IMG/VR virus record: IMGVR_UViG_3300047457_000623
Span: 1 to 48,089 of that record
Reading direction: 5' to 3' (one strand)
DNA length: 48,089 nucleotides
DNA from: a virus
The notes under the pieces were generated by a model that did not search any database, was not told where the DNA came from, and saw only the letters and a program-made list of their open reading frames with translations. Below are positions 3,917 through 15,612 of this stretch, piece by piece. The number at the start of each line of letters is the position of its first letter. The first letter of the stretch is position 1. The position numbers were made by a program, and so were the translations under genes.

Positions 3917-4279
3917 TTATTGAGTGACCGTCGTCACAAAGCCTTTATGATAAGTAATAAAACTTTCAAAGTCATGAATGCCAGTCTCATCTTCTACAGT
4001 CTTATTAATTAAATCAATAGTGATATCTGGATGGTCTCCTCCATAGGCACCGTCGCTATTACTTGCCCATAGACCAAAGCCAGTCTCCTCAGCCCACTGG
4101 TCCCCAATCAACTGGGACACAATAATACGTGTTGCATAGGACGTGTCATTCCACCTTGGCATTGCTGCATGTAGTGCATTCGCCAGGGACTCAAACCTAT
4201 CATAGCCACCCCAGTGGCTGTACAGGTTAACTGATAAGTTCTTATCTTGTTTAATTGTATATACGATTCTGTCTCCCAT
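3917..4279 (-). CDS. Conserved-looking phage protein (120 aa)
   Basis: 120 residues, starting MGDRIVYTIKQDKNLSVNLYSHWGG and containing GFGLWASNSDGAYGGDHPDI. The aromatic, glycine-rich pattern looks like a compact folded domain I have seen among actinophage early proteins, but I cannot name it. The start overlaps the stop of a 24-residue peptide gene (TAATG) and has AAAGGA 10 nt upstream inside that gene, indicating coupled translation. Confidence 0.8.
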   Translation of the reverse strand: MGDRIVYTIKQDKNLSVNLYSHWGGYDRFESLANALHAAMPRWNDTSYATRIIVSQLIGDQWAEETGFGLWASNSDGAYGGDHPDITIDLINKTVEDETGIHDFESFITYHKGFVTTVTQ

Positions 4280-5947: not shown

Positions 5948-6002
5948 ATTTTCCCAGATTTGGGGAATTATGTCAAGTCATCTTAATGTGATGTACGTCA
6001 CA
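5948..6002 (-). promoter_or_regulatory. Weak promoter with Crp/GlxR-type operator
   Basis: TTGACA (5976-5971) is followed at 17 bp by a poor -10 (GAAAAT, 5953-5948). TGTGATGTACGTCACA at 5987-6002 is a perfect TGTGA-N6-TCACA palindrome with central TA and lies just upstream of the -35; it overlaps the stop codon of the upstream gene. A CCCAGATTTGGG inverted repeat and a TCGTAAT (5938-5944) lie in the leader. Confidence 0.6.
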
Positions 6003-6186
6003 GAATCTCTACGCTTGCTGCTTCTGCAACCTCATTATATTTAACAAGATAATCAATATCTTCTGCAAACATGCTAATAGCGTATTTAATCTCAGTCTCA
6101 GGATCTAGATCTGACGGGTAGAAAGAATCCTCATCCTTCCACTCATCAGTATCAAACTCTCTAGATATATGTACTCTTATCTTCAT
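5998..6186 (-). CDS. Hypothetical protein (62 aa)
   Basis: 62 residues, starting MKIRVHISREFDTDEWKDED, acidic, with an alternating strand-helix look. ATG 6186 is preceded by AGAAGGA and overlaps the previous stop (ATGA). An upstream in-frame start (6213) would lie inside the neighbouring gene and lacks a ribosome site. No family recognised. Confidence 0.75.
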   Translation of the reverse strand: MKIRVHISREFDTDEWKDEDSFYPSDLDPETEIKYAISMFAEDIDYLVKYNEVAEAASVEIL

Positions 6187-6344
6187 ACACGTCCTTCTGC
6201 CAGTAGGCCCCATAGTAGGTCCTCTAATTGTCTTAGTATTTGTTTATCCTCATCAGCAAACATGGTATCTTTAATATGATGATGAAGAGAATAGTTTAGT
6301 GTAGTAGCCATCTTCTCTACTTGTTCTGCTGTATATCCTAGCAT
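6183..6344 (-). CDS. Small protein (53 aa)
   Basis: 53 residues: MLGYTAEQVEKMATTLNYSL, a His-rich turn (HHHIKD), then a Leu-rich helix. It resembles small helical phage early proteins but I cannot name it. It fits exactly between its neighbours, with TAATG at its start and ATGA at its end, which strongly supports it as a gene. Confidence 0.7.
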   Translation of the reverse strand: MLGYTAEQVEKMATTLNYSLHHHIKDTMFADEDKQILRQLEDLLWGLLAEGRV

Positions 6345-6574
6345 TATGCGTTTTCCCTTTCCATAAGAATATTATAGGCGGCAAGACTGGTTATGTCAAG
6401 ATTCATTTCTCTGCCAGGATATTTATCAAGCAGAAAGTTTACTGCGTCCCCTGCTGTTTTAAATTCACTATAGTTTTCACTAGCACCATAGTGTTGTATA
6501 GTTATCTCCCAACAATCAGTACCGCCAGGAGAGACAGAATATTCCATTTCATATATTTGTGCATTTAGGGTCAT
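6344..6574 (-). CDS. Hypothetical protein (76 aa)
   Basis: 76 residues, starting MTLNAQIYEMEYSVSPGGTD with WEITIQHYGASENY, a probable small alpha/beta domain. First gene of a three-gene unit (76, 53 and 62 residues). No ribosome site precedes the ATG; a TATGAT -10 box ends 6 nt upstream, so the transcript is probably leaderless. Confidence 0.75.
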   Translation of the reverse strand: MTLNAQIYEMEYSVSPGGTDCWEITIQHYGASENYSEFKTAGDAVNFLLDKYPGREMNLDITSLAAYNILMERENA

Positions 6575-6580
6575 GATTTA

Positions 6581-6609
6581 ATCATAGCAAAAAACTGGGA
6601 AAAAATCAA
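6581..6609 (-). promoter_or_regulatory. Leftward promoter, leaderless type
   Basis: TTGATT (6609-6604), 17-bp spacer, TATGAT (6586-6581) with extended -10 TGC. The start codon at 6574 follows after 6 nt. Confidence 0.7.
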
Positions 6610-6701
6610 GTCTTCTTAATAAAACTAATTCATGATATTTTTAGTGAGTTCGGCCCCTTTTTGCAAAATTTTTTATGATCTGCAAATTGCAAAATAAAAA
6701 T

Positions 6702-6727
6702 TGAGCAGTTTATACTCTTGCTCAGGA
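6702..6727. repeat. TGAGCA/TGCTCA stem-loop, copy 1
   Basis: TGAGCA (6702-6707) pairs with TGCTCA (6719-6724), followed by GGA. It lies 11 nt past the stop of the DUF932 gene in the leftward direction, with a T-rich stretch after it, so this copy could also act as a terminator. First of six related elements between 6.7 and 9.8 kb. Confidence 0.65.
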
Positions 6728-6738
6728 GTTGAAATTAC

Positions 6739-7755
6739 TTACGCAATTTCTAAAGTGTTGCGAACAACATTTAGCAAACGATTTTTTTCTGCGTTGATAG
6801 CAGGGTCAAAACCAGAAGCAGCAGCAAGAATACTTTCGTTATTCCCACCACGAGATGAGCGATACCAATCAAGGCGTTCAGTTAGCGCATTGAAAGCACC
6901 CCAAGCGTTACCAGCAATCATGCCATTGAATTCGCCTGTGTAGATGTCATTGATAAGGTCAATCTTGTTAGTCCACTTTGTTGTGGCAAGTTTCTTATCA
7001 GCATCAGGCTTAGGATAAGCAGCAAGAACAATGTCATTGAATTGTTGCGCTGTGATTTCCTTAGCAATCATTGCGTGTGCCATCTTGTCGAATTCGTCCA
7101 TGTAAGCATTAGCAAGACCAAGTGCTGTACGAGCAATTTGGATTTTACCATCAGCAGATTGAGTATGACGAATTTTGAAAGATTGCTTGATACCATTCTT
7201 TTTGCTAGTGCGACCTAACGCAACAGCAAGAGTGTTAGCGCATACAACACGAACAGGTGTGATTGACGCTTGAATAGCAATAGAGCCATCGTGTGATGTA
7301 TTGATTAGAAGATAGGTTTTGACTTTATCTGCTACACCATTAGGGTCAAGAATAGTCTCACGCTCAAGAGCAAGAGAGCCAAATACAACACGACCACCAC
7401 GAATAGAGCCAGCAGTTTCCCAACGACCACCACCATCTAGGATATTGTCACCAAAAGCGAATAGTTCCTCATTTTGAACAGGAACATAACGCTGTCCAAC
7501 AACACCAAGAACATCTGTCTGAGTATTATCAGTAGGGTTAGTTCTTACAACATATTGATAAGATTTATCTGATGTAAGATGATTTGGAATTTCTAAATCT
7601 TCTAATCTAACATTCCAATTATTTAGATTAGCAGCAACAAGCATTTCTGCTGTATTTTTTTCTTCTGTGAAAACTGTGCCTAGACCATGCCAAGCAGGTT
7701 CACGGAAAGATGCGAATGAAGCAACGCCATTTTGCGTTTCTAGTTCATGAGCCAT
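6739..7755 (-). CDS. DUF932 / TIGR03299 phage-plasmid-like protein
   Basis: 338 residues, full length for the family. The N-terminus (GVASFASFREPAWHGLGTVF) and later GGGRWETAGSIRGGRVVFGSL, LLINTSHDGS and PVRVVCANTLAVAL match the DUF932 family found on phages and plasmids. Its biochemical role is unknown; links with replication or recombination have been suggested for relatives. Strong ribosome site AAAGGAAAT. It has its own promoter with upstream operator elements and its own 3' stem-loop, so it is probably a single-gene unit and well expressed. Confidence 0.9.
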   Translation of the reverse strand: MAHELETQNGVASFASFREPAWHGLGTVFTEEKNTAEMLVAANLNNWNVRLEDLEIPNHLTSDKSYQYVVRTNPTDNTQTDVLGVVGQRYVPVQNEELFAFGDNILDGGGRWETAGSIRGGRVVFGSLALERETILDPNGVADKVKTYLLINTSHDGSIAIQASITPVRVVCANTLAVALGRTSKKNGIKQSFKIRHTQSADGKIQIARTALGLANAYMDEFDKMAHAMIAKEITAQQFNDIVLAAYPKPDADKKLATTKWTNKIDLINDIYTGEFNGMIAGNAWGAFNALTERLDWYRSSRGGNNESILAAASGFDPAINAEKNRLLNVVRNTLEIA

Positions 7756-7785
7756 TTTTTTTATTTCCTTTCTGTAGTTGTAACA

Positions 7786-7869
7786 ATCTTAGCAGATGGG
7801 GCTGACAAAGTCAAATAAGACTATTAGATTAGTACAATTCGGACATTTTGCGGAGTGTCGTAAATCACA
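7786..7869 (-). promoter_or_regulatory. Promoter of the DUF932 gene with upstream elements
   Basis: TTGACT (7814-7809), 17-bp spacer, TAAGAT (7791-7786), extended -10 TGC. Upstream lie a GTCC-type element at 7832-7854 (GTAC...CGGACATTTTGCGGA) and a partly degenerate Crp-like site at 7854-7869 with an intact TCACA half. Confidence 0.7.
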
Positions 7870-7914
7870 CCGTAAAGACTTGACAAAATAGGTTTTGGGG
7901 GGCGGGGGCTTGAT

Positions 7915-7942
7915 TGAGCAGTTTACGTGGACATGCTCAGGT
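7915..7942. repeat. TGAGCA/TGCTCA stem-loop, copy 2
   Basis: TGAGCA (7915-7920) and TGCTCA (7934-7939), loop 13 nt, followed by GG. It lies about 80 nt past the stop of the 8023 gene. Confidence 0.6.
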
Positions 7943-7991
7943 CCCTTGCAGATCCCTGAAAGAAAGGATGAAAGAGGGATGCTGCGTACAT

Positions 7992-8016
7992 TGCGGGGCC
8001 TTTCATGAACCCCGCA
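7992..8016 (-). terminator. Hairpin after the 8023-8475 gene
   Basis: TGCGGGG (7992-7998) and CCCCGCA (8010-8016) form a 7-bp GC-rich stem with an 11-nt loop, 6 nt past the stop codon. It has no U-tract leftward, so it may act as a 3'-end protecting hairpin rather than a classical terminator. Confidence 0.5.
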
Positions 8017-8022
8017 AATTTA

Positions 8023-8475
8023 CTACAACGTTGTGATATTGTCGACTTCTACATCAACATCAATATCATGCGTATGTGAATCTGCATAAACAGTCAAGTC
8101 GATATCTTCAACGTCAAATGTTGATAGGTCCGCCAATGGAACGCTAACCCTTCCTGTAATTGTTGCAGTTGCTTCAAATTCAATTTCCTTGGTTGGGTTG
8201 AATCCAAAGATATTACAGATATCAGAGACAATCTCTTCTGCATCCATTTCTAAATATTCAGCCAGTCTATTTTCTAGGTGCCCAACTTTAGAAACATATT
8301 CATTCAGCCTTTTATTTTTACGACGACCTTGTTCGAGTTCCCATTCAAGGTCAACGACTTTGATAGTTGGGTACTGAATGGTTTGGTCCGTTGCATCCAA
8401 ATCAATAACCTTGTAGGTTACCAATTGATTTGGGTTGTAGTGAACTGGAGCGTCCACGGTATTAGTTGTCTCCAT
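8023..8475 (-). CDS. Hypothetical phage protein (150 aa)
   Basis: 150 residues. An N-terminal polar segment, a central Arg/Lys/Leu helix (about residues 46-75) and a C-terminal beta-rich acidic part (ATATITGRVSVPLADLS, then DIDVDVEVDNI). The layout suggests a helical oligomerisation segment followed by a small beta domain. No family named. The ATG overlaps the end of the upstream gene by 14 bp. Confidence 0.78.
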   Translation of the reverse strand: METTNTVDAPVHYNPNQLVTYKVIDLDATDQTIQYPTIKVVDLEWELEQGRRKNKRLNEYVSKVGHLENRLAEYLEMDAEEIVSDICNIFGFNPTKEIEFEATATITGRVSVPLADLSTFDVEDIDLTVYADSHTHDIDVDVEVDNITTL

Positions 8476-8737
8476 TTGTGATATCCTTTCCTAATTCATC
8501 AAATTCTTTGATAAGACCTATCATCTCATCTAATTGTGTTTCTGTCAATAGGACATGGGTAACAAGGGTAGTAGTCATAGATGAGAGTGCTGCTGAGTAA
8601 TGAAACATAGCAGTAGCAAATTCGTCGCTTGACATATTATCTTTGTTGTGATAAATTGCACGAGCCATATCCATTATCATTTCATCATGAACGGCTTCTT
8701 GTGTTGCGTTCTGTAGTTCTAGCATTGTTGCTATCAT
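8462..8737 (-). CDS. Hypothetical helical protein (91 aa)
   Basis: 91 residues, almost all helical (MIATMLELQNATQEAVHDEM, then Thr/Leu-rich), no known domain. ATG 8737 follows GAAAGGA with good spacing; a second ATG at 8725 is possible. First gene of a two-gene unit with the 150-residue protein. Confidence 0.75.
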   Translation of the reverse strand: MIATMLELQNATQEAVHDEMIMDMARAIYHNKDNMSSDEFATAMFHYSAALSSMTTTLVTHVLLTETQLDEMIGLIKEFDELGKDITNGDN

Positions 8738-8766
8738 TGGGGGTTTCCTTTCTTTTCAATAATATA

Positions 8767-8843
8767 ATCTTAGCATTTTTTTGGGGAAAATACAAATCAG
8801 GACCTTAATTAATCTCACATAATGGACTGTGATTTACATCACA
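8767..8843 (-). promoter_or_regulatory. Promoter with perfect Crp/GlxR-type operator
   Basis: TTGTAT (8795-8790), 17-bp spacer, TAAGAT (8772-8767) with extended -10 TGC. TGTGATTTACATCACA at 8828-8843 is a perfect palindrome with central TA, centred 68.5 bp from the end of the -10. Confidence 0.7.
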
Positions 8844-8868
8844 CCCCTCGGCCCCCTAAAGTTGAGGT

Positions 8869-8895
8869 TGAGCCTTTTAGCGTCATGCTCAGGAC
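8869..8895. repeat. TGAGC/GCTCA stem-loop, copy 3
   Basis: TGAGCC (8869-8874) and TGCTCA (8886-8891), with GGA after; one stem position differs from the other copies. Confidence 0.5.
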
Positions 8896-8896
8896 G

Positions 8897-8964
8897 ATCT
8901 CTCTAGGAATAACTGCAAGGATTGTTTAGATCACTTCATTTGTTAGCAGTGCTTATCAAGAGAG
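8897..8964. ncRNA. Possible structured RNA between two stem-loops
   Basis: CTCTCT near 8897 and AGAGAG near 8964 are complementary, and the inner arms (TAACTGC with GCAGTGCTTA) continue the pairing with small bulges, so about 68 nt can fold into one long imperfect hairpin. It has no open frame and is bounded by TGAGCA elements 3 and 4. Only structural evidence. Confidence 0.3.
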
Positions 8965-8973
8965 AAAAACTTT

Positions 8974-8999
8974 GGAGCAGTTTTTTATCATGCTCAGGA
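8974..8999. repeat. GGAGCA/TGCTCA stem-loop, copy 4
   Basis: GAGCA (8975-8979) pairs with TGCTC (8991-8995); AGGA follows. It lies 21 nt past the stop of the 55-residue gene at 9021. Confidence 0.55.
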
Positions 9000-9020
9000 T
9001 ATTGCGTTGACGCCGCAATT

Positions 9021-9188
9021 TTAGTAAGTCTTTACCATAGCAAAACGCTGTTGTCCGTTTGCCAAGCGTAGCATTACCTTAGTTACATTACGAGTTTGTG
9101 GAACAAACTTTTCAATGCGACCTGTAACGCCTGTTTTAGATGTAGTGAATAAATCACCAATCTGATAAGTGTATCCGCCTAATGTCAT
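9021..9188 (-). CDS. Small beta-rich protein (55 aa), paralogue of 9788-9955
   Basis: 55 residues: YTYQIGDLFTTSKTGVTGRI and a C-terminal strand (KVMLRLANGQQRFAMVKT). Same length and clear similarity in the [LV]YxxGDxxTxxKxxVTGxI start to the product of 9788-9955. The compact strand pattern resembles an SH3/KOW-like barrel, which is an inference. GAAAGGCAATAAC precedes the ATG. Its stop is followed by a small ATTGCG/CGCAAT hairpin and stem-loop copy 4. Confidence 0.75.
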   Translation of the reverse strand: MTLGGYTYQIGDLFTTSKTGVTGRIEKFVPQTRNVTKVMLRLANGQQRFAMVKTY

Positions 9189-9221
9189 TTTGTTATTGCC
9201 TTTCTATTTTGGGTTTTTGTG

Positions 9222-9247
9222 TGAGCAGTTTTATCTCATGCTCAGGA
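9222..9247. repeat. TGAGCA/TGCTCA stem-loop, copy 5
   Basis: TGAGCA (9222-9227) and TGCTCA (9239-9244), 11-nt loop, AGGA-type end. It lies 7 nt past the stop of the 140-residue gene at 9255. Confidence 0.65.
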
Positions 9248-9254
9248 GAGTGAA

Positions 9255-9677
9255 TTACAAGTATCTTGCGATAGCGTTGTAGGTAGAAGTGGAAACGAGT
9301 TCCTCATCTGTCATCTTGAGAATACGGATAGCGTTCTCAATTTCCTCTTTATTCTCACGATACTGCCACTCATGAATAGACACATAGTCTTTCTTAGGTT
9401 CAGCAGGTAGGTCAATAGAGTTTTTAGGTAGTGAGAAAGATACTTGGATTTCGCCATTGTATCTTGTATGAGCAGATAAATCCTCTGCCTTTGAGATTTG
9501 AGCAAGTGCTAACTTGCCTATTTCTTTATTCCACGCCTTTACTGCCTTATCGTGTTTTGCTTCGTTTGCTTCTTGTGTAGAGAAGTCTTTTTCTAATTTA
9601 GCCAACGCACCCTCTAGTGCCTTGATTACCTTAGTTGTAGCGATTTTTACATTTATCGCTTTGCTACTTCTAGCCAT
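9255..9677 (-). CDS. Hypothetical phage protein (140 aa)
   Basis: 140 residues with a Lys/Ala-rich helical N-terminal half (KALEGALAKLEKDFSTQEAN) likely to form a coiled coil, then a beta segment (GEIQVSFSLPKNSIDLP) and a C-terminal helix (EEIENAIRILKMTDEELVS). I recognise the general pattern from actinophage early genes but cannot name it. It has its own promoter and 3' stem-loop. Confidence 0.8.
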   Translation of the reverse strand: MARSSKAINVKIATTKVIKALEGALAKLEKDFSTQEANEAKHDKAVKAWNKEIGKLALAQISKAEDLSAHTRYNGEIQVSFSLPKNSIDLPAEPKKDYVSIHEWQYRENKEEIENAIRILKMTDEELVSTSTYNAIARYL

Positions 9678-9710
9678 TTGTTTATCCTTTCTTAGTGGGT
9701 TGTTATTTAT

Positions 9711-9739
9711 AGTCTAGCATTTTTACTGCTAGAAATCAA
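9711..9739 (-). promoter_or_regulatory. Leftward promoter
   Basis: TTGATT (9739-9734), 17-bp spacer, TAGACT (9716-9711) with extended -10 TGC. It begins only 1 bp from stem-loop copy 6, so the upstream gene's 3' element and this promoter adjoin. Confidence 0.65.
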
Positions 9740-9740
9740 G

Positions 9741-9769
9741 TGAGCAGTTTATCGTTCTCATGCTCAGGA
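9741..9769. repeat. TGAGCA/TGCTCA stem-loop, copy 6
   Basis: TGAGCA (9741-9746) and TGCTCA (9761-9766), 14-nt loop, GGA end; 18 nt past the stop of the gene at 9788. Confidence 0.65.
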
Positions 9770-9787
9770 GAGTTCTCGTTTTGAGAT

Positions 9788-9955
9788 TTACTTTGCTGTC
9801 CAAGTAGTCCAGCGAGGTGTGCCATTGACATCAAGTTTGACACGAACGCTTGTTCCGTCTGTGTTTGGCTTGATTTCTGTGATAACACCTGTGACCTTAG
9901 ACTTCTGTGAAGTGTAGGTGTCGCCTACCTTGTATAGTGCGTTCTTTACTGCCAT
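9788..9955 (-). CDS. Small beta-rich protein (55 aa), paralogue of 9021-9188
   Basis: 55 residues: LYKVGDTYTSQKSKVTGVIT, then TSVRVKLDVNGTPRWTTW. Same length as and similar to the product of 9021-9188; probably a small SH3/KOW-like barrel, which could bind nucleic acid or protein. Strong ribosome site GAAAGGAAAC. Its promoter carries both a perfect Crp/GlxR-type site and a GTCC-type element. Confidence 0.75.
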   Translation of the reverse strand: MAVKNALYKVGDTYTSQKSKVTGVITEIKPNTDGTSVRVKLDVNGTPRWTTWTAK

Positions 9956-9993
9956 TTTTGTTTCCTTTCGTAGTTGTTTGACCTTACTATCTA

Positions 9994-10081
9994 ATTATGA
10001 CATTTTTTGAGATTTTTGTCAAATCTAAAATCCCATAAATCTTTGTGACTTATCTCACAGGACAAATCGGACATTTCGGAC
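9994..10081 (-). promoter_or_regulatory. Promoter with Crp/GlxR-type operator and GTCC element
   Basis: TTGACA (10022-10017), 17-bp spacer, CATAAT (9999-9994) with extended -10 TGT. TGTGACTTATCTCACA at 10044-10059 is a perfect palindrome with central TA, centred 57.5 bp from the end of the -10. The next base starts the 22-bp GTCC element (10060-10081), read on the minus strand as GTCC-N5-GTCC-N5-GTCC. Confidence 0.75.
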
Positions 10082-10145
10082 TATTGCCAGATTAGAAATA
10101 AGATAATCCATAAAACTAGCCATATTTTCCAATCCATTATTCCCC

Positions 10146-10865
10146 CTATTTTTTACTAGAGGAAAACACTATATCAGATTTATTGCTTACGCACAAGTCA
10201 CACCTTACACAAGCAGAGCCTTCTTTAGATATTAGTGGTATCTGCTTTCTATTCTCAGGACACTTTGCGCCTACCTTGCCAATCATTGCTTTTAGATCTG
10301 CCTGCCCAATTGCGAAGGTATCTGCAAGGTATGCCAATCTAATACCCTTTTCTTTATTTAGACTAATAGCAACTTCTTTATTCTCGCTATCTGTAGAGAA
10401 ATATAAACTAAGATTATCAATATCTTTTAGTATATTGGCTGCAGAGGCAACTCTAGTGTATACCCAAAACTTTACGTCAGGATTATTTAGAATAACGTGC
10501 TTCCATGCGAATGTGTAGTCATCACTAAAGAAATCTCCGTCCCAGTGGATACGGAATAACTTTTCTGCATTGCGTTTATCACAATCTTTCTTGAAATCAT
10601 CAATCATATCTTGCAGCAGATTTTCCATAGTATCATGGTCTGCGTCTTTTAGTAAATTCCAGTTATGAAGTAGGTTTTCCCTTACTCCTTTATATACTCT
10701 TTCGAGTTTTCCTGCGTAGCATACTTTAGAGCATACAGAGGTTTCACCAGGACACGAGAAAGTTTTTCCAGCAGGTAATCCAAAAGTGTTGGCAATTGTT
10801 GGGGTTTTTCCATTTGGGGAGACTGCATTAGCCACCTTCCTATCATTAGAGCGTTTTAGTTTCAT
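10146..10865 (-). CDS. gp88-family protein (Gene product 88)
   Basis: 239 residues. The N-terminal GKTPTIANTFGLPAGKTFSC and CPGETSVCSKVCYAGKLERV, the central RIHWDGDFFSDDY and FWVYTRVA, and the C-terminal CPENRKQIPLISKEGSACVR followed by CDLC match the gp88 family of actinophages. The family has conserved Cys residues in both terminal parts, consistent with a metal or Fe-S site, but no proven reaction. Expressed with the upstream 47-residue basic protein from the promoter at 11017. Confidence 0.82.
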   Translation of the reverse strand: MKLKRSNDRKVANAVSPNGKTPTIANTFGLPAGKTFSCPGETSVCSKVCYAGKLERVYKGVRENLLHNWNLLKDADHDTMENLLQDMIDDFKKDCDKRNAEKLFRIHWDGDFFSDDYTFAWKHVILNNPDVKFWVYTRVASAANILKDIDNLSLYFSTDSENKEVAISLNKEKGIRLAYLADTFAIGQADLKAMIGKVGAKCPENRKQIPLISKEGSACVRCDLCVSNKSDIVFSSSKK

Positions 10866-10866
10866 G

Positions 10867-11010
10867 CTATTCCTTTTCTTTCTTAGCCAATTCTATCATT
10901 TTTTTATTGCTTTGTCTAGTATATTTTTTTCTGCTAGAAATTGGGGTCGCTGCATTGCTACGACGTAATTCTTGAACACGACGTAATTCTGCTTGCGATT
11001 TTTTATACAT
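10867..11010 (-). CDS. Small basic protein (47 aa)
   Basis: 47 residues, rich in Lys/Arg (MYKKSQAELRRVQELRRSNA, then SSRKKYTRQSNKKM), helical, likely nucleic-acid binding or a partner of the gp88-like protein whose gene starts 2 nt after its stop. No ribosome site; a TATTAT -10 box ends 6 nt before the ATG, a leaderless-type start. Confidence 0.62.
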   Translation of the reverse strand: MYKKSQAELRRVQELRRSNAATPISSRKKYTRQSNKKMIELAKKEKE

Positions 11011-11016
11011 AACTTT

Positions 11017-11091
11017 ATAATAGCATAATGATTAGATTTTTACAAGTTTAGGGAGTTTCTACGTAAAGTACGTAAAACGGACATTTGGTAC
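11017..11091 (-). promoter_or_regulatory. Promoter with GTCC-type element
   Basis: TTGTAA (11045-11040), 17-bp spacer, TATTAT (11022-11017) with extended -10 TGC. A GTCC-type element (GTAAAACGGACATTTGGTAC, 11072-11091) and a TACGTAA direct repeat lie upstream. No Crp-type palindrome is present here. Confidence 0.65.
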
Positions 11092-11110
11092 AAAAACCCC
11101 TCGGGCCGTT

Positions 11111-11338
11111 TTATTCAAGAATTACATACAAATCAAATTGTGCATAGTCATCAACTTCAACTAAATCAACTTCACCAAAGTCATTTGAATATGAAATTGC
11201 ATATCCATTTTTCATTCCAACAATATTTATGACTTGCACGATTTCGCCATCAATCATTATATAATCGCTTGGCTCTAACTGATCCACATTTAGAATATCA
11301 ACTTTGACGAAATCCATGCTTATCATTGTATCAGACAT
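11111..11338 (-). CDS. Hypothetical protein (75 aa)
   Basis: 75 residues, acidic and beta-rich: VDQLEPSDYIMIDGEIVQVI, then a Gly/Tyr turn and a last strand. The LxxxDYIxxxGExxxV layout resembles small SH3/KOW-like domains; not a firm assignment. It follows the 69-residue gene directly (adjacent stop and ATG). Last gene of the unit starting at 12204; a CCC-GA-GGGG hairpin with a T-run follows its stop at about 11095-11110. Confidence 0.72.
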   Translation of the reverse strand: MSDTMISMDFVKVDILNVDQLEPSDYIMIDGEIVQVINIVGMKNGYAISYSNDFGEVDLVEVDDYAQFDLYVILE

Positions 11339-11548
11339 TTAGCGAATGCTCACTTCACCATTGCGATAAAAAGTTTTTGTATACATTTTACCTGTTGGGT
11401 CAGATAGATTATAGGTTGCGTATTCTTTAGCATCTCCAAAGTCCACGCATTTTTCCCACGCATCAACAGCAGTTAGCATATCTGATACTCGCAGGGTATT
11501 TACCAATTCTCCGTCATACGAAGTAGTAAGCGCATAGGTGTATTCCAT
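11339..11548 (-). CDS. Hypothetical protein (69 aa)
   Basis: 69 residues: MEYTYALTTSYDGELVNTLR, a helix (AVDAWEKCVDFG), then TYNLSDPTGKMYTKTFYRNG. Looks like a small alpha/beta domain with a terminal strand pair. No family recognised. Sits 2 nt after the preceding gene in the same unit. Confidence 0.72.
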   Translation of the reverse strand: MEYTYALTTSYDGELVNTLRVSDMLTAVDAWEKCVDFGDAKEYATYNLSDPTGKMYTKTFYRNGEVSIR

Positions 11549-11550
11549 TT

Positions 11551-11703
11551 TTAGTTCTCCTCATCTAGGTCAAATTCAATATAGTTGTCATTTCCGTCAT
11601 CTTTTAGATTAGTATAGATAATTATCTGTCCGTCATTATCCTCATCTATCTGATAATCAGGTGCGATTTTAGCAAGCGCAGTTCTGAATTTATATCCATT
11701 CAT
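11551..11703 (-). CDS. Small acidic protein (50 aa)
   Basis: 50 residues: MNGYKFRTALAKIAPDYQID, then an acidic stretch with DDNDNYIEFDLDEEN-like composition. I use ATG 11703, which has GAGAGGA about 9 nt upstream; a longer frame to 11736 would run into the previous gene. No function assigned. Confidence 0.68.
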   Translation of the reverse strand: MNGYKFRTALAKIAPDYQIDEDNDGQIIIYTNLKDDGNDNYIEFDLDEEN

Positions 11704-11704
11704 T

Positions 11705-11986
11705 TTAGTATTCCTCTCTTTCAATAAGCCACGCATCTAGGTGGTGTTGTTCAATAATAGCCCACGCAGGAGCAGTAGTCAAACCCTTATAGGTCACGCC
11801 TTCAGGCATAGGTATTTCTAAATCCCAAAGTCCAGCATCATTCACAGCATCTATGGCTTCAATACAGGGTTGAACCATGAACGCAGGAACAGGCGGGTAG
11901 TGATTAGACTTCAGGTGTATTTCAACCTGAGCCTCAATAGTTAGATTATCAGCAAGAGCCAAATCATTAGCAAAGATACTTCCCAT
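11705..11986 (-). CDS. Hypothetical phage protein (93 aa)
   Basis: 93 residues starting MGSIFANDLALADNLTIEAQ and ending with a Trp/His-rich part (APAWAIIEQHHLDAWLIERE). The pattern is compact and looks conserved but is not one I can name. GGAGG lies about 10 nt before the ATG inside the upstream gene's end. Confidence 0.74.
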   Translation of the reverse strand: MGSIFANDLALADNLTIEAQVEIHLKSNHYPPVPAFMVQPCIEAIDAVNDAGLWDLEIPMPEGVTYKGLTTAPAWAIIEQHHLDAWLIEREEY

Positions 11987-11988
11987 TA

Positions 11989-12204
11989 TTATCGTGCCTC
12001 CATAGTAGCAAATAGTTCAGGCTCACTTAGCAAGCCATTATCCCAAATTACATCTCCGTCATCATCAAGAATAATATCATAGATATTACACTCGCAACTT
12101 TCAATTTCATATTCATCATCACTAGACCCCCAATATGAGTAGCCTTTACCATTACACAAATCGCAGTTAGCAATTAGTTTTAGAGCAATTTCCAATTTAT
12201 CCAT
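11989..12204 (-). CDS. DnaJ-type half zinc-finger protein (71 aa)
   Basis: 71 residues. CDLCNGKGYSYWG followed later by CEC gives CxxCxGxG plus CxC, which is half of the DnaJ central zinc finger. In DnaJ this binds Zn and contacts unfolded protein; in a 71-residue phage protein the role is unknown. The remainder is acidic. A second gene with the same motif lies at 15831-15941. First gene of a four- to five-gene leftward unit from the promoter at 12233. Confidence 0.75.
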   Translation of the reverse strand: MDKLEIALKLIANCDLCNGKGYSYWGSSDDEYEIESCECNIYDIILDDDGDVIWDNGLLSEPELFATMEAR

Positions 12205-12232
12205 TTTTCATTTCCTTTCTTTCAATACTCTG

Positions 12233-12297
12233 AGCCTATCAGATAGGGCTGACAAAATCAAATCTGACACGCCCTGTCCAATATGTCCGTTTTGTCC
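12233..12297 (-). promoter_or_regulatory. Promoter with GACACGCC box and GTCC element
   Basis: TTGATT (12261-12256), 17-bp spacer, TAGGCT (12238-12233). GACACGCC (12266-12273) lies 4 bp upstream of the -35. The GTCC element at 12276-12297 has three exact GTCC words 9 bp apart and overlaps the stop of the upstream gene. No Crp-type palindrome. Confidence 0.65.
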
Positions 12298-12794
12298 TAC
12301 CATGAGGACTGATAATAGAATGATAGATTTTCAAAGTCAGGTCTATCAATAAGAGGCTGCAATTGATTTATAGTATCCATTAGGTCACGCCAATACCATT
12401 CATCAATATCAGTATTACCAAAGAAAAATCCTTCTCTAGGTGGCAAGATATTAGGGTCTTTATTGGTAATCGCTAGAGTACAGTCATTTACTAATTGTTT
12501 TATTAGTTTATGAGGTACATAGTATTCACCACAGTCATCTTCTCCACGCTGTACAGTCTCAACAAACCAATTGTGTATCTGATTACACTTACGCCAATAG
12601 GCTACATTTACGGATACATCTACACCATAGATACTTTCTTTATCTACAAGAGTATCAACACCAGCAGCCTCAACTACATCATTCCATTGTGGAATAGTAG
12701 CCTGAGAGTATTTAGTATCGCTATCACGATCTAACTTATTCCAGTCTATTTTATTTATGTGCTTTCTAGCACTTAGATACATATCTAATCCCAT
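12297..12794 (-). CDS. Conserved phage protein of the MGLDMYL family (165 aa)
   Basis: 165 residues. MGLDMYLSARKHI at the start, VAYWRKCNQIHNWFVETVQR with DDCGEYYV in the middle, and GFFFGNTDIDEWYWRDLMDT and the terminal FYYQSSW are strongly conserved signatures of a protein found in many phages and some bacteria. Its function is unknown. Strong ribosome site GAAAGGAAA. Follows the 66-residue gene in the unit from the promoter at 13043. Confidence 0.82.
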   Translation of the reverse strand: MGLDMYLSARKHINKIDWNKLDRDSDTKYSQATIPQWNDVVEAAGVDTLVDKESIYGVDVSVNVAYWRKCNQIHNWFVETVQRGEDDCGEYYVPHKLIKQLVNDCTLAITNKDPNILPPREGFFFGNTDIDEWYWRDLMDTINQLQPLIDRPDFENLSFYYQSSW

Positions 12795-12811
12795 TTATTT
12801 ATTTTCCTTTC

Positions 12812-13012
12812 TTATAGGTCTGATACTTTTACAGCAATAGTAGCCCAACGATTTCCATTGAACCTAATTGAATAAGCCTGATAATCAGTACCTACCCATA
12901 CATCATCACGCTTTTCAGCAAAGTTTATTTCTCCACCCTGATATTTACGGGCAAAAGAAGTAGGTCTATAATACTGACCTACAAGTAAATCTTCAATTGA
13001 ATAACTTCTCAT
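12812..13012 (-). CDS. Small protein (66 aa), paralogue of 13864-14061
   Basis: 66 residues: YSIEDLLVGQYYRP, then AEKRDDVWVGTDYQAYSIRF. The same pattern (Y[ST]IExLLVGxxYR...AEK...VW...AY) occurs in the product of 13864-14061, so the two are paralogues. Likely a small beta domain; no name. AAGAAAGGAAATTC precedes the ATG. Confidence 0.74.
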   Translation of the reverse strand: MRSYSIEDLLVGQYYRPTSFARKYQGGEINFAEKRDDVWVGTDYQAYSIRFNGNRWATIAVKVSDL

Positions 13013-13042
13013 TGAATTTCCTTTCTTTATTTTCAGGCTTCT

Positions 13043-13134
13043 AGCCTACCATTTTCTACTGACAATTTCAAATCAGACACGCCGAAAATTTGTGAGAAAT
13101 TTCACAACGCCCGTAAAGTGTGACGTAATTCACA
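13043..13134 (-). promoter_or_regulatory. Promoter with two perfect Crp/GlxR-type operators
   Basis: TTGAAA (13071-13066), 17-bp spacer, TAGGCT (13048-13043). GACACGCC at 13076-13083 lies 4 bp upstream of the -35. TGTGAGAAATTTCACA (13091-13106) and TGTGACGTAATTCACA (13119-13134) are both perfect TGTGA-N6-TCACA palindromes, 28 bp apart, centred 55.5 and 83.5 bp from the end of the -10. Confidence 0.72.
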
Positions 13135-13135
13135 T

Positions 13136-13156
13136 TGTGGATAAACCTGTGGATAA
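13136..13156. other. Pair of DnaA boxes 12 bp apart
   Basis: TGTGGATAA at 13136-13144 and 13148-13156: two perfect DnaA boxes on the minus strand, head to tail with a 12-bp repeat. They begin 1 bp after the second Crp-type site. Confidence 0.65.
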
Positions 13157-13187
13157 CCCCTCGGGGCCCCATTGTTGAAATTTCAAC
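13157..13187. other. Hairpins after the 33-residue membrane peptide gene
   Basis: CCCC-T-CGGGG and the perfect 14-bp palindrome GTTGAAATTTCAAC (13174-13187) lie at the 3' end of the leftward unit that starts at 13849. They may mark its termination. Confidence 0.4.
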
Positions 13188-13288
13188 TAATTATTTTTTT
13201 GCTTACGATCCTTTAGCGAAAAATAAATTATCGCAATTATTGGAGAAAGCAAAAATAATTGAACAAGAGTTGTTAGAAATCTAATCAT
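13187..13288 (-). CDS. Small membrane peptide (33 aa)
   Basis: 33 residues: MIRFLTTLVQLFLLSPIIAI followed by IYF and a basic tail (SLKDRKQKNN). One transmembrane helix with a positively charged C-terminal tail, which would sit in the cytoplasm. The ATG overlaps the previous stop (ATGA), which supports it as a gene. Function unknown. Confidence 0.62.
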   Translation of the reverse strand: MIRFLTTLVQLFLLSPIIAIIYFSLKDRKQKNN

Positions 13289-13476
13289 ACAACAATTAGT
13301 CCTAACTCATCAATGCCACACGCTTTTTCAAATTTTGCTTTGTCAAATCTTTCGTTGTCACTTTGAAAGTATTGAGCGAATTCTTCTACTAAATCCTCAA
13401 AGACTTGTGGATGAATTTCATCCGCAAATCCTTTTAGAATATTAGAAGTTTTTACATAGTCTTTTCGTGTCATCAT
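13285..13476 (-). CDS. Hypothetical phage protein (63 aa)
   Basis: 63 residues: MTRKDYVKTSNILKGFADEI, then FEDLVEEFAQYFQSDNERFD and KAKFEKACG. I recall a family of small helical phage proteins with the same MTRKDY...DNxRFDxxxFxxACG pattern, but no function is known. Start at 13476 or 13473 (two ATG codons in a row). Confidence 0.74.
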   Translation of the reverse strand: MMTRKDYVKTSNILKGFADEIHPQVFEDLVEEFAQYFQSDNERFDKAKFEKACGIDELGLIVV

Positions 13477-13730
13477 TATTCATTCGCTCCTAACAAAATC
13501 CATGAATGAGTTGCGCCTTCATTGACACGCTCTAACTCAGAAAGAATTTCTGCTTTTGTCATTAGCGAAGGTCTGCCAAGTAATTCAGTAATAGCAGAGA
13601 TATTTAGAGCAATAAAATCCTCAGCAGGCAGGTTTTTGATAGCGCCTAAGAATGGCGAATGGTCAGCGATACGAGAGACGAAATTTATTCCGTCTGCTGT
13701 AAATTGATAATCTGTGTAATTTGTATTCAT
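13476..13730 (-). CDS. Hypothetical protein (84 aa)
   Basis: 84 residues starting MNTNYTDYQFTADGINFVSR, mixed alpha/beta. Its ATG overlaps the stop of the 39-residue gene (TAATG). A consensus-like promoter lies inside that upstream gene (13767-13795), so this gene can also be expressed separately. No domain recognised. Confidence 0.72.
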   Translation of the reverse strand: MNTNYTDYQFTADGINFVSRIADHSPFLGAIKNLPAEDFIALNISAITELLGRPSLMTKAEILSELERVNEGATHSWILLGANE

Positions 13731-13849
13731 TAGTTTTTACCTTTCTTTGGGTTTGTTGTTGATACAATTTTAGCGATTTTCTCTAAGTTTGTCAAGCGTT
13801 GCGCTTCTTGTTGCGCTTTGATTATTTCTTGAAATTCATGAAGTTTCAT
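13730..13849 (-). CDS. Small basic protein (39 aa)
   Basis: 39 residues: MKLHEFQEIIKAQQEAQRLT and a Lys-rich end (NPKKGKN). Helical, basic. GAAAGGAAATAAA precedes the ATG and the stop overlaps the next ATG. The coding DNA also holds a promoter. Confidence 0.62.
   Translation of the reverse strand: MKLHEFQEIIKAQQEAQRLTNLEKIAKIVSTTNPKKGKN
13767..13795 (-). promoter_or_regulatory. Promoter inside the 39-residue gene
   Basis: TTGACA (13795-13790), 17-bp spacer, TAAAAT (13772-13767). It would start a transcript about 30 bp before the 84-residue gene. Confidence 0.55.
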
Positions 13850-13863
13850 TTTTATTTCCTTTC

Positions 13864-14061
13864 TTAGTTATTCGCTACTGCTAAAGTGCGGTAGGTATAA
13901 CCACCATTCTGATTTCTAATTTCTACAAGATACGCCTCAGCGTTTTCATACCATACACAAGCAGGGTGTTTTTCTGCTGAGATGATTTCACCTGTTAGAG
14001 TTTTTGAGCGATAGATTTTTCCTACAAGTAGGTTTTCGATAGTGTAGATATTTGCTGACAT
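13864..14061 (-). CDS. Small protein (65 aa), paralogue of 12812-13012
   Basis: 65 residues: YTIENLLVGKIYRSKTLTGE, then AEKHPACVWYENAEAYLVEI and a terminal YRTLAV strand. Paralogous with the product of 12812-13012. AAAGGTGACAACTC precedes the ATG. Its promoter (14096-14124) also carries the GACACGCC box and a Crp-type site, as the paralogue's does, so the duplication seems to include the control region. Confidence 0.74.
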   Translation of the reverse strand: MSANIYTIENLLVGKIYRSKTLTGEIISAEKHPACVWYENAEAYLVEIRNQNGGYTYRTLAVANN

Positions 14062-14095
14062 GAGTTGTCACCTTTCTTTAGTTTCTAATAATTCT

Positions 14096-14161
14096 ATTAT
14101 TTCATATTTAGTTGTAAAAGTCAATTCGACACGCCATTGTGTCTGTGTGATTTATATCACT
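14096..14161 (-). promoter_or_regulatory. Promoter with GACACGCC box and Crp/GlxR-type operator
   Basis: TTGACT (14124-14119), 17-bp spacer, AATAAT (14101-14096). GACACGCC (14128-14135) lies 3 bp upstream of the -35. TGTGATTTATATCACT (14146-14161) has one mismatch, central TA, and is centred 57.5 bp from the end of the -10. It overlaps the stop of the upstream 30-residue gene. Confidence 0.68.
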
Positions 14162-14249
14162 CATGAACACATTTTGATTCAATTTCGTGTCCAAATTCTG
14201 AGACAAGTTCCTCATAGATTTCATCCATATAGTCTAAAAAGTCTGACAT
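14157..14249 (-). CDS. Small acidic peptide (30 aa)
   Basis: 30 residues: MSDFLDYMDEIYEELVSEFG, then a short Cys/His end. Very acidic helix. Clear ribosome site GAAAGG 8 nt before the ATG and a dedicated promoter upstream (14282-14310). Function unknown; the size and charge would suit a small protein inhibitor or DNA-mimic, which is speculation. Confidence 0.58.
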   Translation of the reverse strand: MSDFLDYMDEIYEELVSEFGHEIESKCVHE

Positions 14250-14281
14250 AGTTTTACCTTTCTTTAGTTTCTTACTCCGTA

Positions 14282-14369
14282 AGTCTAGCATATAAATCTC
14301 AAAAAAGCAAATCGACACGCCGTGTTTTGGAGAAATATTTTTGTGATCTTAAGCACACTGCGACACGCC
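14282..14369 (-). promoter_or_regulatory. Promoter with two GACACGCC boxes and a Crp/GlxR-type operator
   Basis: TTGCTT (14310-14305), 17-bp spacer, TAGACT (14287-14282) with extended -10 TGC. GACACGCC at 14314-14321 (part of palindrome ACACGCCGTGT) and again at 14362-14369. Between them TGTGATCTTAAGCACA (14342-14357), one mismatch, centred 67.5 bp from the end of the -10. Confidence 0.66.
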
Positions 14370-14418
14370 CGAGTGCGTCGGGGATTTTTTGCAGCATTTT
14401 TATTTACTGCAAAAAACT
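14368..14418. terminator. Hairpins between 14249 and 14422 genes
   Basis: CCCGA-GTGCG-TCGGG (14368-14382) followed by GATTTTTT would be a rho-independent terminator rightward. Next to it TTTTTTGCAG and CTGCAAAAAA form a 10-bp inverted repeat around a 12-nt loop (about 14385-14416), just past the stop of the leftward 49-residue gene. Confidence 0.5.
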
Positions 14419-14421
14419 TTT

Positions 14422-14571
14422 TTATTCTACAACATCTAGAACATCAAATACATCAAACTTTTTCAAATCGTTTTCTGATAACGAAAGAAAAATTTTGTTT
14501 AGATCAAATACAGCACCTAAGTCTGTATCAGATTCAGTTACAAAACTGATAAGAACATTTTTCTTAGTCAA
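14422..14571 (-). CDS. Small protein with TTG start (49 aa)
   Basis: 49 residues: TKKNVLISFVTESDTDLGAV, then LSLSENDLKKFDVFDVLDVV. Acidic with a hydrophobic C-terminal repeat-like end. I use TTG 14571 because GGAGG stands 8 nt upstream; there is no in-frame ATG. It overlaps the end of the upstream gene by 8 bp. Confidence 0.62.
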   Translation of the reverse strand: MTKKNVLISFVTESDTDLGAVFDLNKIFLSLSENDLKKFDVFDVLDVVE

Positions 14572-14773
14572 AGTAAATACCTCCTTTTACATCTTTATGA
14601 TTTACACAAACATTACCACGAGAAATTTCTACATGGCATTTGAAACAAAGCATTTTTACTTGATTAGTCATCAAGCCTAATTCAATGTTTATTTTTTCAT
14701 CAGTGGTGGCAGAATTGAAATCAACCCAACCAGCACCATTTTCATTTATACGAAAAATTTCTAATTTACTCAT
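14564..14773 (-). CDS. Small protein with a CxxC zinc-like motif (69 aa)
   Basis: 69 residues: MSKLEIFRINENGAGWVDFN, then MLCFKCHVEISRGNVCVNHK. CFKCH plus C and H ten or more residues later could bind one zinc ion. AAAGGATAACTAA precedes the ATG. No named family. A 19-bp direct repeat lies upstream. Confidence 0.7.
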   Translation of the reverse strand: MSKLEIFRINENGAGWVDFNSATTDEKINIELGLMTNQVKMLCFKCHVEISRGNVCVNHKDVKGGIYFD

Positions 14774-14821
14774 TTAGTTATCCTTTCTAAGATACTTACT
14801 TTTTATTTTGTTTTGCTGGGC

Positions 14822-14865
14822 GATTATTTGCTAGGCTCACCTTTCGGATTATTTGCTAGGCTCAC
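14822..14865. repeat. Two direct repeats of 19 bp
   Basis: GATTATTTGCTAGGCTCAC at 14822-14840 and 14847-14865, a 25-bp period, in the gap between the genes at 14564 and 14882. On the minus strand each copy ends with AAATAAT, -10-like. May be a doubled regulator site. Confidence 0.55.
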
Positions 14866-14881
14866 GCCATTTTATTTAGTT

Positions 14882-15154
14882 TTAGAGATTACAGGCAACC
14901 CCTCTACTATGAACACCTAATTCATAGTGATTTTTTGCTATGCAATTTTTTGATAATTCTTGAAATGATTTGCATTTCATTTCGTGATAGTTTATCCAAT
15001 TCTTATGAACAACTCTATCACAGATTTGGCAGAAGTGCCATTTCTGACCATGCTTTAGAACAACTTTATTTTCTACGATTTCGTAGCGTTCAACAAATTT
15101 AGCACTATGAGTGCAATTTATTTCTTTACATTTATTTTTTTGTAGTGTAGTCAT
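14882..15154 (-). CDS. Cys/His-rich zinc-finger-like protein (90 aa)
   Basis: 90 residues: MTTLQKNKCKEINCTHSAKF, then HFCQICDRVVHKNWINYHEM and KC. The CxxC with two following His and further Cys suggests one or two zinc sites; FCQICDRVVHKNWxxYH resembles treble-clef or HNH-like fingers but lacks a clear nuclease signature. ATG 15154 has AGAAAGGTAGG upstream; a much longer frame reaching 15355 would run through promoter elements and is not used. Driven from the divergent control region. Confidence 0.68.
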   Translation of the reverse strand: MTTLQKNKCKEINCTHSAKFVERYEIVENKVVLKHGQKWHFCQICDRVVHKNWINYHEMKCKSFQELSKNCIAKNHYELGVHSRGVACNL

Positions 15155-15188
15155 TTTCTGACCTACCTTTCTTTTATCTAATACAAGT

Positions 15189-15402
15189 ATTCTAGCAGGG
15201 GGGTCTGACATTTTCGAGGGTATAAAACGGACATTTAGGACTTTGTGAGGTAAGTCACATGTGACGTATGCCACATAAGTTATCCACATAGTTATCCACA
15301 GGGGGCGGTCCAATGTCCGATTTGTACTATTTAGAATGTGACCTAATTCACACACGACACGCCGTGTTAGAACTTGACTTTGTCGCCTATCTATGTTATT
15401 AT
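15189..15402. promoter_or_regulatory. Divergent control region: two promoters, three Crp/GlxR-type sites, two DnaA boxes, two GTCC elements
   Basis: Leftward -10 TAGAAT (15194-15189, extended TGC). Then a GTCC element (15220-15241), TGTGAGGTAAGTCACA (15244-15259, perfect), TGTGACGTATGCCACA (15260-15275, one mismatch, directly abutting), DnaA boxes TTATCCACA at 15280-15288 and 15292-15300 (12 bp apart), a second GTCC element (15308-15327), TGTGACCTAATTCACA (15337-15352, perfect), GACACGCC within ACACGCCGTGT (15356-15363), and the rightward promoter TTGACT (15374-15379), 17 bp, TATTAT (15397-15402). The rightward Crp-type site is centred 57.5 bp from the end of its -10. Confidence 0.75.
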
Positions 15403-15437
15403 TCTCCTATTAGAAAATAAAGAAAGGAAGTCTAAAA

Positions 15438-15551
15438 ATGGATAAAGTTAGACAAGATGAAATTCTCGCTCAGACACCTGAGCAGACCCTAGCAGATTAC
15501 GCTAGAATTGATGCGATTATCGCAAAAGGTACTTACTCACAAAGTAAGTGA
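15438..15551 (+). CDS. Small protein (37 aa), first gene of the rightward early set
   Basis: 37 residues: MDKVRQDEILAQTPEQTLAD and a helix ending AKGTYSQSK. Ribosome site AAAGGAAG 8 nt upstream of ATG and a strong promoter from the divergent region. Helical, no known family. Its stop overlaps the start of the next Crp-type site. Confidence 0.65.
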   Translation: MDKVRQDEILAQTPEQTLADYARIDAIIAKGTYSQSK

Positions 15552-15612
15552 CCTAAATCACAGGGGACACACCCCACAGACACCCCAAAATGTCAGTGGC
15601 AGGGTATAGAAT
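15547..15612 (+). promoter_or_regulatory. Rightward promoter with Crp/GlxR-type operator, weak -35
   Basis: AGTGACCTAAATCACA (15547-15562), one mismatch, central TA; TAGAAT -10 at 15607-15612. The centre-to-(-10 end) distance is again 57.5 bp. No -35 is visible at 17 bp, which would fit an activator-dependent promoter. Confidence 0.5.

What the first reader, a model, noticed from the sequence alone, without database searches (positions are those of the whole stretch)
5987..15562. Array of Crp/GlxR-type operators upstream of early phage promoters
Seven perfect TGTGA-N6-TCACA palindromes (starting at 5987, 8828, 10044, 13091, 13119, 15244, 15337) and four with one mismatch (14146, 14342, 15260, 15547) lie in or at the edge of early intergenic regions. 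Nine of the eleven have central TA, the TGTGANNTANNTCACA form described for actinobacterial GlxR/Crp. A 10-position match is expected far less than once by chance in 48 kb (about 48,000 divided by 4 to the 10th, assuming equal bases). Several lie at the same distance from the -10 (57.5 bp at 10044, 14146, 15337, 15547; 67-69 bp at 8828, 14342), that is, upstream of the -35 and about one helix turn apart. I infer that host cAMP-receptor-type protein, or a phage homologue not in this window, activates or represses these promoters. I do not know of such an array described in a phage.
Basis: partly seen in the sequence, partly recalled or inferred. Interest (0 to 1): 0.88.

Follow-up and report, generated by a model that had tools for sequence, protein, structure and literature searches.

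The report
Phage early promoters using Crp sites
A widespread group of uncultured freshwater phages places a textbook binding site for the bacterial regulator Crp upstream of many of its early promoters, spaced by whole turns of the DNA helix, which strongly suggests that these viruses borrow a host transcription activator to start infection.

Summary
The array is real and far beyond chance. Relatives share it: 265 exact sites in 80 related viral loci, against 0-6 for every other spacer length. In 15 relatives of 80-120 kb, all exact sites fall within one early region of about 11 kb or less.

The decisive result is geometry. Across 586 non-redundant promoters found without reference to the sites, the site centre lies 41, 52, 62-63 or 72 bp from the -10: helical phasing at 10.5 bp. 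Within orthologous genes the site moves by whole turns. The few half-turn exceptions carry a second, abutting, in-phase site. This is class I activator geometry, not a repressor overlapping the promoter.

Three near-complete relatives encode no detectable Crp homologue, and the nearest cultured relatives (Streptomyces Stanwilliamsviridae) lack the array. The likely host order, small-genome freshwater Actinobacteria (probably 'Ca. Nanopelagicales'), encodes a GlxR-type Crp with an identical recognition helix. However, those genomes show no excess of consensus sites, and the ten tested lack class III adenylate cyclase, so cAMP control is doubtful.

Binding and activation are inferred. The closest precedent is NtcA sites in cyanophages.

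The parts
5987..6002 (-). Crp-type site TGTGACGTACATCACA, dyad 41 bp upstream of the -10 (first base 5953, - strand) of the gene at 5185-5916(-)
8828..8843 (-). Crp-type site TGTGATGTAAATCACA, dyad 63 bp upstream of the -10 (8772, -) of the gene at 8462-8737(-)
10044..10059 (-). Crp-type site TGTGAGATAAGTCACA, dyad 52 bp upstream of the -10 (9999, -; TTGACA-N17-CATAAT) of the gene at 9788-9955(-)
13091..13106 (-). Crp-type site TGTGAAATTTCTCACA, dyad 50 bp upstream of the -10 (13048, -) of the gene at 12812-13012(-)
13119..13134 (.). second Crp-type site TGTGACGTAATTCACA, 28 bp upstream of 13091; dyad 78 bp from the 13048 -10, not clearly in phase; next to two DnaA boxes (13136, 13148)
14146..14161 (-). 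one-mismatch Crp-type site AGTGATATAAATCACA, dyad 52 bp upstream of the -10 (14101, -; TTGACT-N17-AATAAT) of the gene at 13864-14061(-)
14342..14357 (-). one-mismatch Crp-type site TGTGCTTAAGATCACA, dyad 62 bp upstream of the -10 (14287, -) of a short gene starting near 14249(-)
15244..15259 (-). promoter-proximal member of an abutting tandem pair, dyad 57 bp upstream of the -10 (15194, -), half a turn out of phase; gene 14882 to about 15154 (-)
15260..15275 (-). distal member of the tandem pair (one mismatch), dyad 73 bp from the 15194 -10, i.e. in phase
15337..15352 (+). Crp-type site TGTGACCTAATTCACA, dyad 52 bp upstream of the -10 (15397, +) of the gene at 15438-15551(+)
15547..15562 (+). 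one-mismatch Crp-type site AGTGACCTAAATCACA, dyad 52 bp upstream of the -10 TAGAAT near 15607(+) of the gene starting near 15638(+)
3923..3938 (.). twelfth, one-mismatch site, overlapping the end of ORF 3917-4279(-); exact in relatives G009 and G013, but 90 bp from the nearest -10 and under coding constraint; doubtful member
7854..7869 (-). weak two-mismatch site TGTGATTTACGACACT, dyad about 70 bp upstream of the DUF932-gene promoter (-10 at 7791, -)

Best explanation
The sites are Crp/GlxR operators that recruit a host Crp-family dimer to viral sigma-A-type early promoters and activate them as class I promoters. Crp bound upstream on the proper face of the helix would touch the RNA polymerase alpha C-terminal domain, whose flexible linker tolerates moving the site by whole helical turns. 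Shown here: the sites, their conservation, strict N6 spacer, confinement to one early region, promoter architecture (TTGA(A/C)(A/T)-N17-TGnTAnAAT then AGAAAGG), helical phasing, and absence of a recognisable Crp gene in near-complete relatives. Inferred: the protein is the host's single Crp/GlxR, it acts positively, and the hosts are small-genome freshwater Actinobacteria (probably 'Ca. Nanopelagicales'). Whether cAMP is needed is open.
For: The half-sites with N6 occur 265 times in 80 related loci (76 loci have at least one), against 0-6 for other spacers and 0 for direct or everted repeats. In 15 relatives of 80-120 kb there are 61 exact sites against 2 control matches, all within about 11 kb per genome. 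Promoter-anchored scan of 586 non-redundant promoters: 99 exact sites against 0 control, 241 with up to one mismatch against 1, with peaks at 41, 50-53, 61-64 and 71-73 bp; Rayleigh R=0.655 at 10.5 bp for exact sites. A generic promoter pattern gives the same peaks, R=0.73 against a null maximum of 0.31 in 20,000 draws. One promoter per orthologous gene family (35 families) still gives R about 0.63, and within families the site moves by whole turns, e.g. 51/63, 52/63/72, 41/51. Six half-turn-off promoters have an abutting second site in phase. Half-site columns are 95% conserved where the central six and flanks are 42-58%. No Crp in relatives. Seven of eight tested candidate-host genomes encode a Crp about 52-54% identical to GlxR; the six read in full carry the helix GASRETVNKAL. 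In M. tuberculosis upstream CRP binding goes with activation (PMC4117774).
Against: No binding or transcription data exist. Candidate host genomes have no exact site and no excess with one mismatch (111 against 106 control); only 32 of 296 genomes of that order have any exact match, and TGTGA palindromes are not enriched between genes. Ten of ten tested genomes of the order lack class III adenylate cyclase. The host assignment rests on one tRNA search in one class, anti-SD and DnaA-box likeness. The phase, if the +1 lies 12 bases after the first -10 base, puts sites near -53.5, -64.5, -75 and -84.5, about 3 bp off the E. coli series (my knowledge). Rayleigh p-values assume independence, which shared ancestry violates; reduces but does not remove this.
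Confidence: 0.72

Rival explanations
1. A phage-encoded DNA-binding protein of another family, not recognisable as Crp, binds TGTGA-N6-TCACA and activates the early (or delayed-early) promoters.
For: Candidate host genomes show no consensus regulon, so the sites might serve a phage factor; most phage proteins are unknown.
Against: The motif is the textbook Crp/GlxR consensus including central TA (logo); no Crp-like protein in three near-complete relatives.
Confidence: 0.17
2. The sites are repressor operators: Crp or a phage immunity repressor shuts early promoters, as stoperators or operators do.
For: Operator arrays bound by a phage repressor are known in actinophages (L5 stoperators, from memory); cAMP-CRP represses T1 promoters (PMC6737242).
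Against: Sites almost never overlap the -35/-10 or start; they lie 41-73 bp upstream of the -10 in helical register, as activators do. No integrase or repressor was noticed among the scanned genes, though this was not searched exhaustively.
Confidence: 0.07
3. The sites serve another DNA role (replication start, with DnaA boxes, or decoys that soak up host Crp), and the promoter spacing is secondary.
For: Paired DnaA boxes lie by sites at 13119 and 15244-15337 and are enriched at site-bearing promoters.
Against: Most sites have no DnaA box nearby, yet keep helical phase with the promoter; decoys need no phase.
Confidence: 0.04

Closest known systems
NtcA-binding sites in T4-like marine cyanophages (PMC3037559, read)
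   Same: Many predicted sites (1-16 per genome, mean 8.9) for a host global regulator of the same CRP/FNR superfamily, upstream of phage genes, thought to promote phage expression.
   Different: Different regulator and motif (GTA-N8-TAC), different host phylum, sites spread over diverse functions; here all exact sites sit in one early region of small genes and helical phasing is shown.
cAMP-CRP control of E. coli phage T1 (PMC6737242, read)
   Same: Host Crp acts on phage promoters.
   Different: There Crp represses pir, dam and recE promoters in a lysogeny switch; here upstream, phased sites point to activation, with an array conserved across a large lineage.
Class I CRP-dependent promoters of E. 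coli (lac type)
   Same: Palindromic TGTGA-N6-TCACA, upstream of the -35, movable by whole helical turns (from established knowledge).
   Different: Positions are about 3 bp off the E. coli series if the +1 is placed as usual, plus a 41-bp (about -53.5) class; bacterial rather than viral promoters.
GlxR/Crp regulons of Corynebacterium and Mycobacterium (PMC3917453, PMC4117774)
   Same: Same motif with central TA; same protein family with identical recognition helix in candidate hosts.
   Different: About 3-12 exact sites per 2.5-6.7 Mb in four such genomes against 7 in about 9.4 kb here.
Streptomyces Stanwilliamsviridae (cluster BE) phages
   Same: Closest cultured relatives by DUF932 protein, protease and portal (46-56% identity).
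   Different: No exact site in six such genomes; one-mismatch sites equal control (27 against 25).

Membership tests
Crp/GlxR operator | TGTGA-N6-TCACA palindrome with strict spacer | tested here: met
   265 exact with N6, 0-6 with other spacers, in 80 loci
Crp/GlxR operator | preference for central TA (GlxR form) | tested here: met
   10 of 11 listed window sites; weaker in relatives (T 0.57, A 0.59 at the two central positions of exact sites)
Crp/GlxR operator | bound by a Crp-family protein | not testable with these tools
   needs gel shift or ChIP
Crp/GlxR operator | likely host encodes a Crp with matching recognition helix | tested here: met
   7 of 8 tested genomes of the candidate order encode Crp; GASRETVNKAL in the six read in full
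Crp/GlxR operator | likely host genome itself carries an excess of such sites | tested here: not met
Class I CRP-dependent promoter | site upstream of the -35, in helical phase with the promoter, movable by whole turns | tested here: met
Class I CRP-dependent promoter | positions near -61.5, -71.5, -82.5 from the start site | tested here: inconclusive
   start sites unknown; from the -10, about -53.5, -64.5, -75, -84.5
Class I CRP-dependent promoter | transcription depends on the activator | not testable with these tools
   needs reporter or infection assay
cAMP-dependent regulation | host makes cAMP by a class III cyclase | tested here: not met
   PF00211 absent in 10 of 10 genomes of the candidate order, present in Corynebacterium and Mycolicibacterium controls
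L5-type stoperator array | asymmetric repressor-binding repeats with a phage repressor | tested here: not met
   sites are symmetric and phased upstream of promoters
Stanwilliamsviridae | shared structural and early genes with cluster BE phages | tested here: inconclusive
   46-56% protein identity at three genes, no DNA-level match; no family-level phylogeny made

The most novel reading that the evidence does not exclude
In streamlined freshwater Actinobacteria that kept Crp but appear to lack both adenylate cyclase and a consensus Crp regulon, the phages are the main users of high-affinity Crp sites: Crp has become a cAMP-independent, near-constitutive activator that a dominant phage lineage exploits for early transcription.
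Probability: 0.25. Interest if true: 0.87.

Novelty: new variant of a known kind. Interest (0 to 1): 0.76.

Why it matters
Borrowing of a host global regulator by a phage is known in outline (NtcA in cyanophages, Crp at T1 promoters), but I found no description of a lineage-wide, helically phased array of Crp-type sites at phage early promoters. If right, early gene expression in abundant freshwater phages is tied to one host protein and may respond to host physiology, and the array is a sequence-level predictor of host and a ready set of promoters for Crp studies in a barely tractable bacterial order. It also poses a sharp question: what does Crp do in hosts that seem to lack both cAMP synthesis and consensus target sites?

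Tried and rejected
Chance: rejected by shuffles, control patterns and spacer controls. Common ancestry alone as the cause of the spacing peaks: tested by one promoter per gene family and by turn-sized shifts within families; reduced, not eliminated. Promoters at 57 bp looked like counter-examples; six of seven have an abutting in-phase second site and the seventh is probably spurious. Phage-encoded Crp: not found. Feature of the whole Stanwilliamsviridae: rejected for six cultured members. A visible host Crp regulon as support: not found, nor a site upstream of the crp genes of the candidate order. Nucleotide search of 50,697 phage records with the first 25 kb of the window found nothing, and Rfam matched nothing. 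One genome fetch failed on region length and one search on handle format.
Full report
WHAT THE WINDOW IS. The window is a 48,089-base IMG/VR virus record, about 37% G+C, with no nucleotide match among 50,697 phage records for its first 25 kb. Genes at 18-48 kb run mostly on the + strand and include tail proteins, a ribonucleotide reductase, portal and protease; the left 17 kb holds many short genes, mostly on the - strand, which I call the early region by analogy. DUF932 protein, protease and portal hit Streptomyces cluster BE (Stanwilliamsviridae) phages best, at 46-56% identity. At least 80 related viral loci exist, many from contigs of 90-120 kb.

THE OBSERVATION. All eleven listed sites are present at the stated coordinates, plus one at 3923. 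Twelve matches with at most one mismatch compare with 2.69 expected and a maximum of 7 in 100 shuffles. Central TA is in ten of the eleven.

CONSERVATION. The 80 relatives hold 265 exact TGTGA-N6-TCACA sites; 76 have at least one and 64 at least two. The same half-sites with spacers of 2-5 or 7-12 bases occur 0-6 times, and direct or everted arrangements never. In 15 larger relatives (80-120 kb) there are 61 exact sites against 2 control matches, all within one stretch of about 11 kb or less per genome. At two well-sampled orthologous promoters the half-site columns are 95% identical, the central six 52-55% and the flanks 42-58%. Six cultured Streptomyces relatives lack the array: no exact site, and 27 one-mismatch sites against 25 control. 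It is therefore a feature of the environmental lineage.

PROMOTER GEOMETRY. Between site and ribosome-binding site lies a promoter, learned from 138 non-redundant cases as TTGA(A/C)(A/T)-N17-TGnTAnAAT, spacer 17 in 120 of 138. Looking from promoters alone, 586 non-redundant promoters carry sites whose dyads lie 41, 50-53, 61-64 and 71-73 bp before the first base of the -10, with few or none between. Exact sites number 99 against 0 control; with up to one mismatch, 241 against 1; with two, 295 against 22. The Rayleigh statistic for exact sites peaks at 10.5 bp. A simple extended -10 pattern without any learned matrix gives the same peaks. Shared ancestry inflates these p-values, so I grouped promoters into 35 gene families: one promoter per family still gives R about 0.63, and within families the site shifts by whole turns (51/63, 52/63/72, 41/51). 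The apparent exceptions at 57 bp, including 15244 in the window, are tandem pairs whose distal member, abutting at 16 bp, lies at 73 bp and is in phase.

MECHANISM. A factor bound upstream on one face of the helix, tolerant of whole-turn moves and not overlapping the polymerase site, is what class I CRP activators do (established knowledge). In M. tuberculosis, upstream CRP binding goes with activation and binding near the start with repression (PMC4117774). Activation is thus the best reading, but no binding or expression was measured.

WHICH PROTEIN. No cNMP-binding or Crp HTH domain was found in 15 large relatives, and an unfiltered profile search of 4,362 open frames in three near-complete relatives and the window gave nothing better than E=1. 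A host protein is therefore likely. A phage tRNA-Asn matched two genomes of 1.3-1.4 Mb at 93%, the next best at 81%, among 395 genomes of the class of Mycolicibacterium; the gene lies between ordinary host genes such as dnaG (my reading). Support: the 16S 3' end CCTCCTTTCT fits the phage AGAAAGG ribosome-binding site, and the same DnaA box occurs in pairs 11-12 bp apart at the start of genome G203 and in the phage. Seven of eight tested genomes of the order encode Crp, with the helix GASRETVNKAL in the six read in full.

WHAT DOES NOT FIT. Those genomes have no exact site, no one-mismatch excess (111 against 106) and no enrichment between genes; only 32 of 296 have any exact match. Ten of ten lack class III adenylate cyclase. 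Either the host is another lineage, or Crp there has few or degenerate targets and works without cAMP. The last is not absurd: M. tuberculosis CRP binds its promoter sites about equally well with and without cAMP (PMC8026907). Only about a third of the promoters found carry an in-phase site (181 of 586), so the early region is not uniformly under this control.

PRECEDENT AND NOVELTY. Marine T4-like cyanophages carry 1-16 predicted sites for NtcA, a host regulator of the same superfamily (PMC3037559), and cAMP-CRP represses promoters of phage T1 (PMC6737242). Literature searches found no Crp/GlxR array in actinophages, though only open-licence papers were searched. I file it as a new variant of a known kind: a phage exploiting a host CRP-family regulator, here with a lineage-wide, helically phased early-promoter array.

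Noticed in passing
window 13136, 13148, 15280, 15292, 2430, 2442 (also 2255, 2316): Perfect DnaA boxes (TTATCCACA), often in pairs 12 bp apart, next to Crp-type sites at 13119 and 15244-15337; enriched at site-bearing promoters in relatives (33 of 181 against 6 of 405). Genome G203 of the candidate host order has like pairs at its start (137/149, 1627/1638).
   Followed up: partly
window near 13075, 14125, 14315, 15355 and relatives: A second element, GGCGTGTC or GACACGCC (half of an ACACGGCGTGT-like palindrome), sits at fixed positions 34 or 41 bases before the -10, just upstream of the -35; binder unknown.
   Followed up: partly
window near 15210 and 15590, and relatives: TGTCAG at exactly -16 from the -10, inside the -35/-10 spacer, in 62 of 181 site-bearing promoters; function unknown.
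   Followed up: partly
window near 15220 and 15310, and relatives: ATGTCCGnTTTnTAC element directly downstream of tandem Crp-type sites, at several positions.
   Followed up: no
G290, G238, G322, G203, G164, G044, G184, G154, G212, G330: Small actinobacterial genomes with no class III adenylate cyclase; Crp was found in all seven of these that were searched for it.
   Followed up: partly
L457 (IMG/VR 650627111, 126-kb contig): Seven exact TGTGA-N6-TCACA sites in 13 kb of a phage without detectable early-gene homologues; mostly TGTGAC-N4-GTCACA. Possibly an independent case.
   Followed up: no
L413, L502, L518: Repeated TGTGAA-N4-TTCACA palindromes upstream of TTGAC promoters in phages without detectable homology to this family.
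   Followed up: no
L438, L481, L496, L587: Loci with no detected hit to the family's proteins but with the same composite elements (tandem sites, ATGTCC, GGCGTGTCG, DnaA boxes), hinting that the promoter code spreads among phages.
   Followed up: no
L109:2600-4144, L110:11657-12865, L110:2063-3502: Relative G001 encodes two tryptophan-halogenase-like proteins and a carbamoyltransferase, unusual phage cargo.
   Followed up: no
window 3923-3938: Twelfth site inside the 3' end of an ORF; relatives G009 and G013 have the exact palindrome TGTGACGACGGTCACA, not in phase with a promoter.
   Followed up: partly
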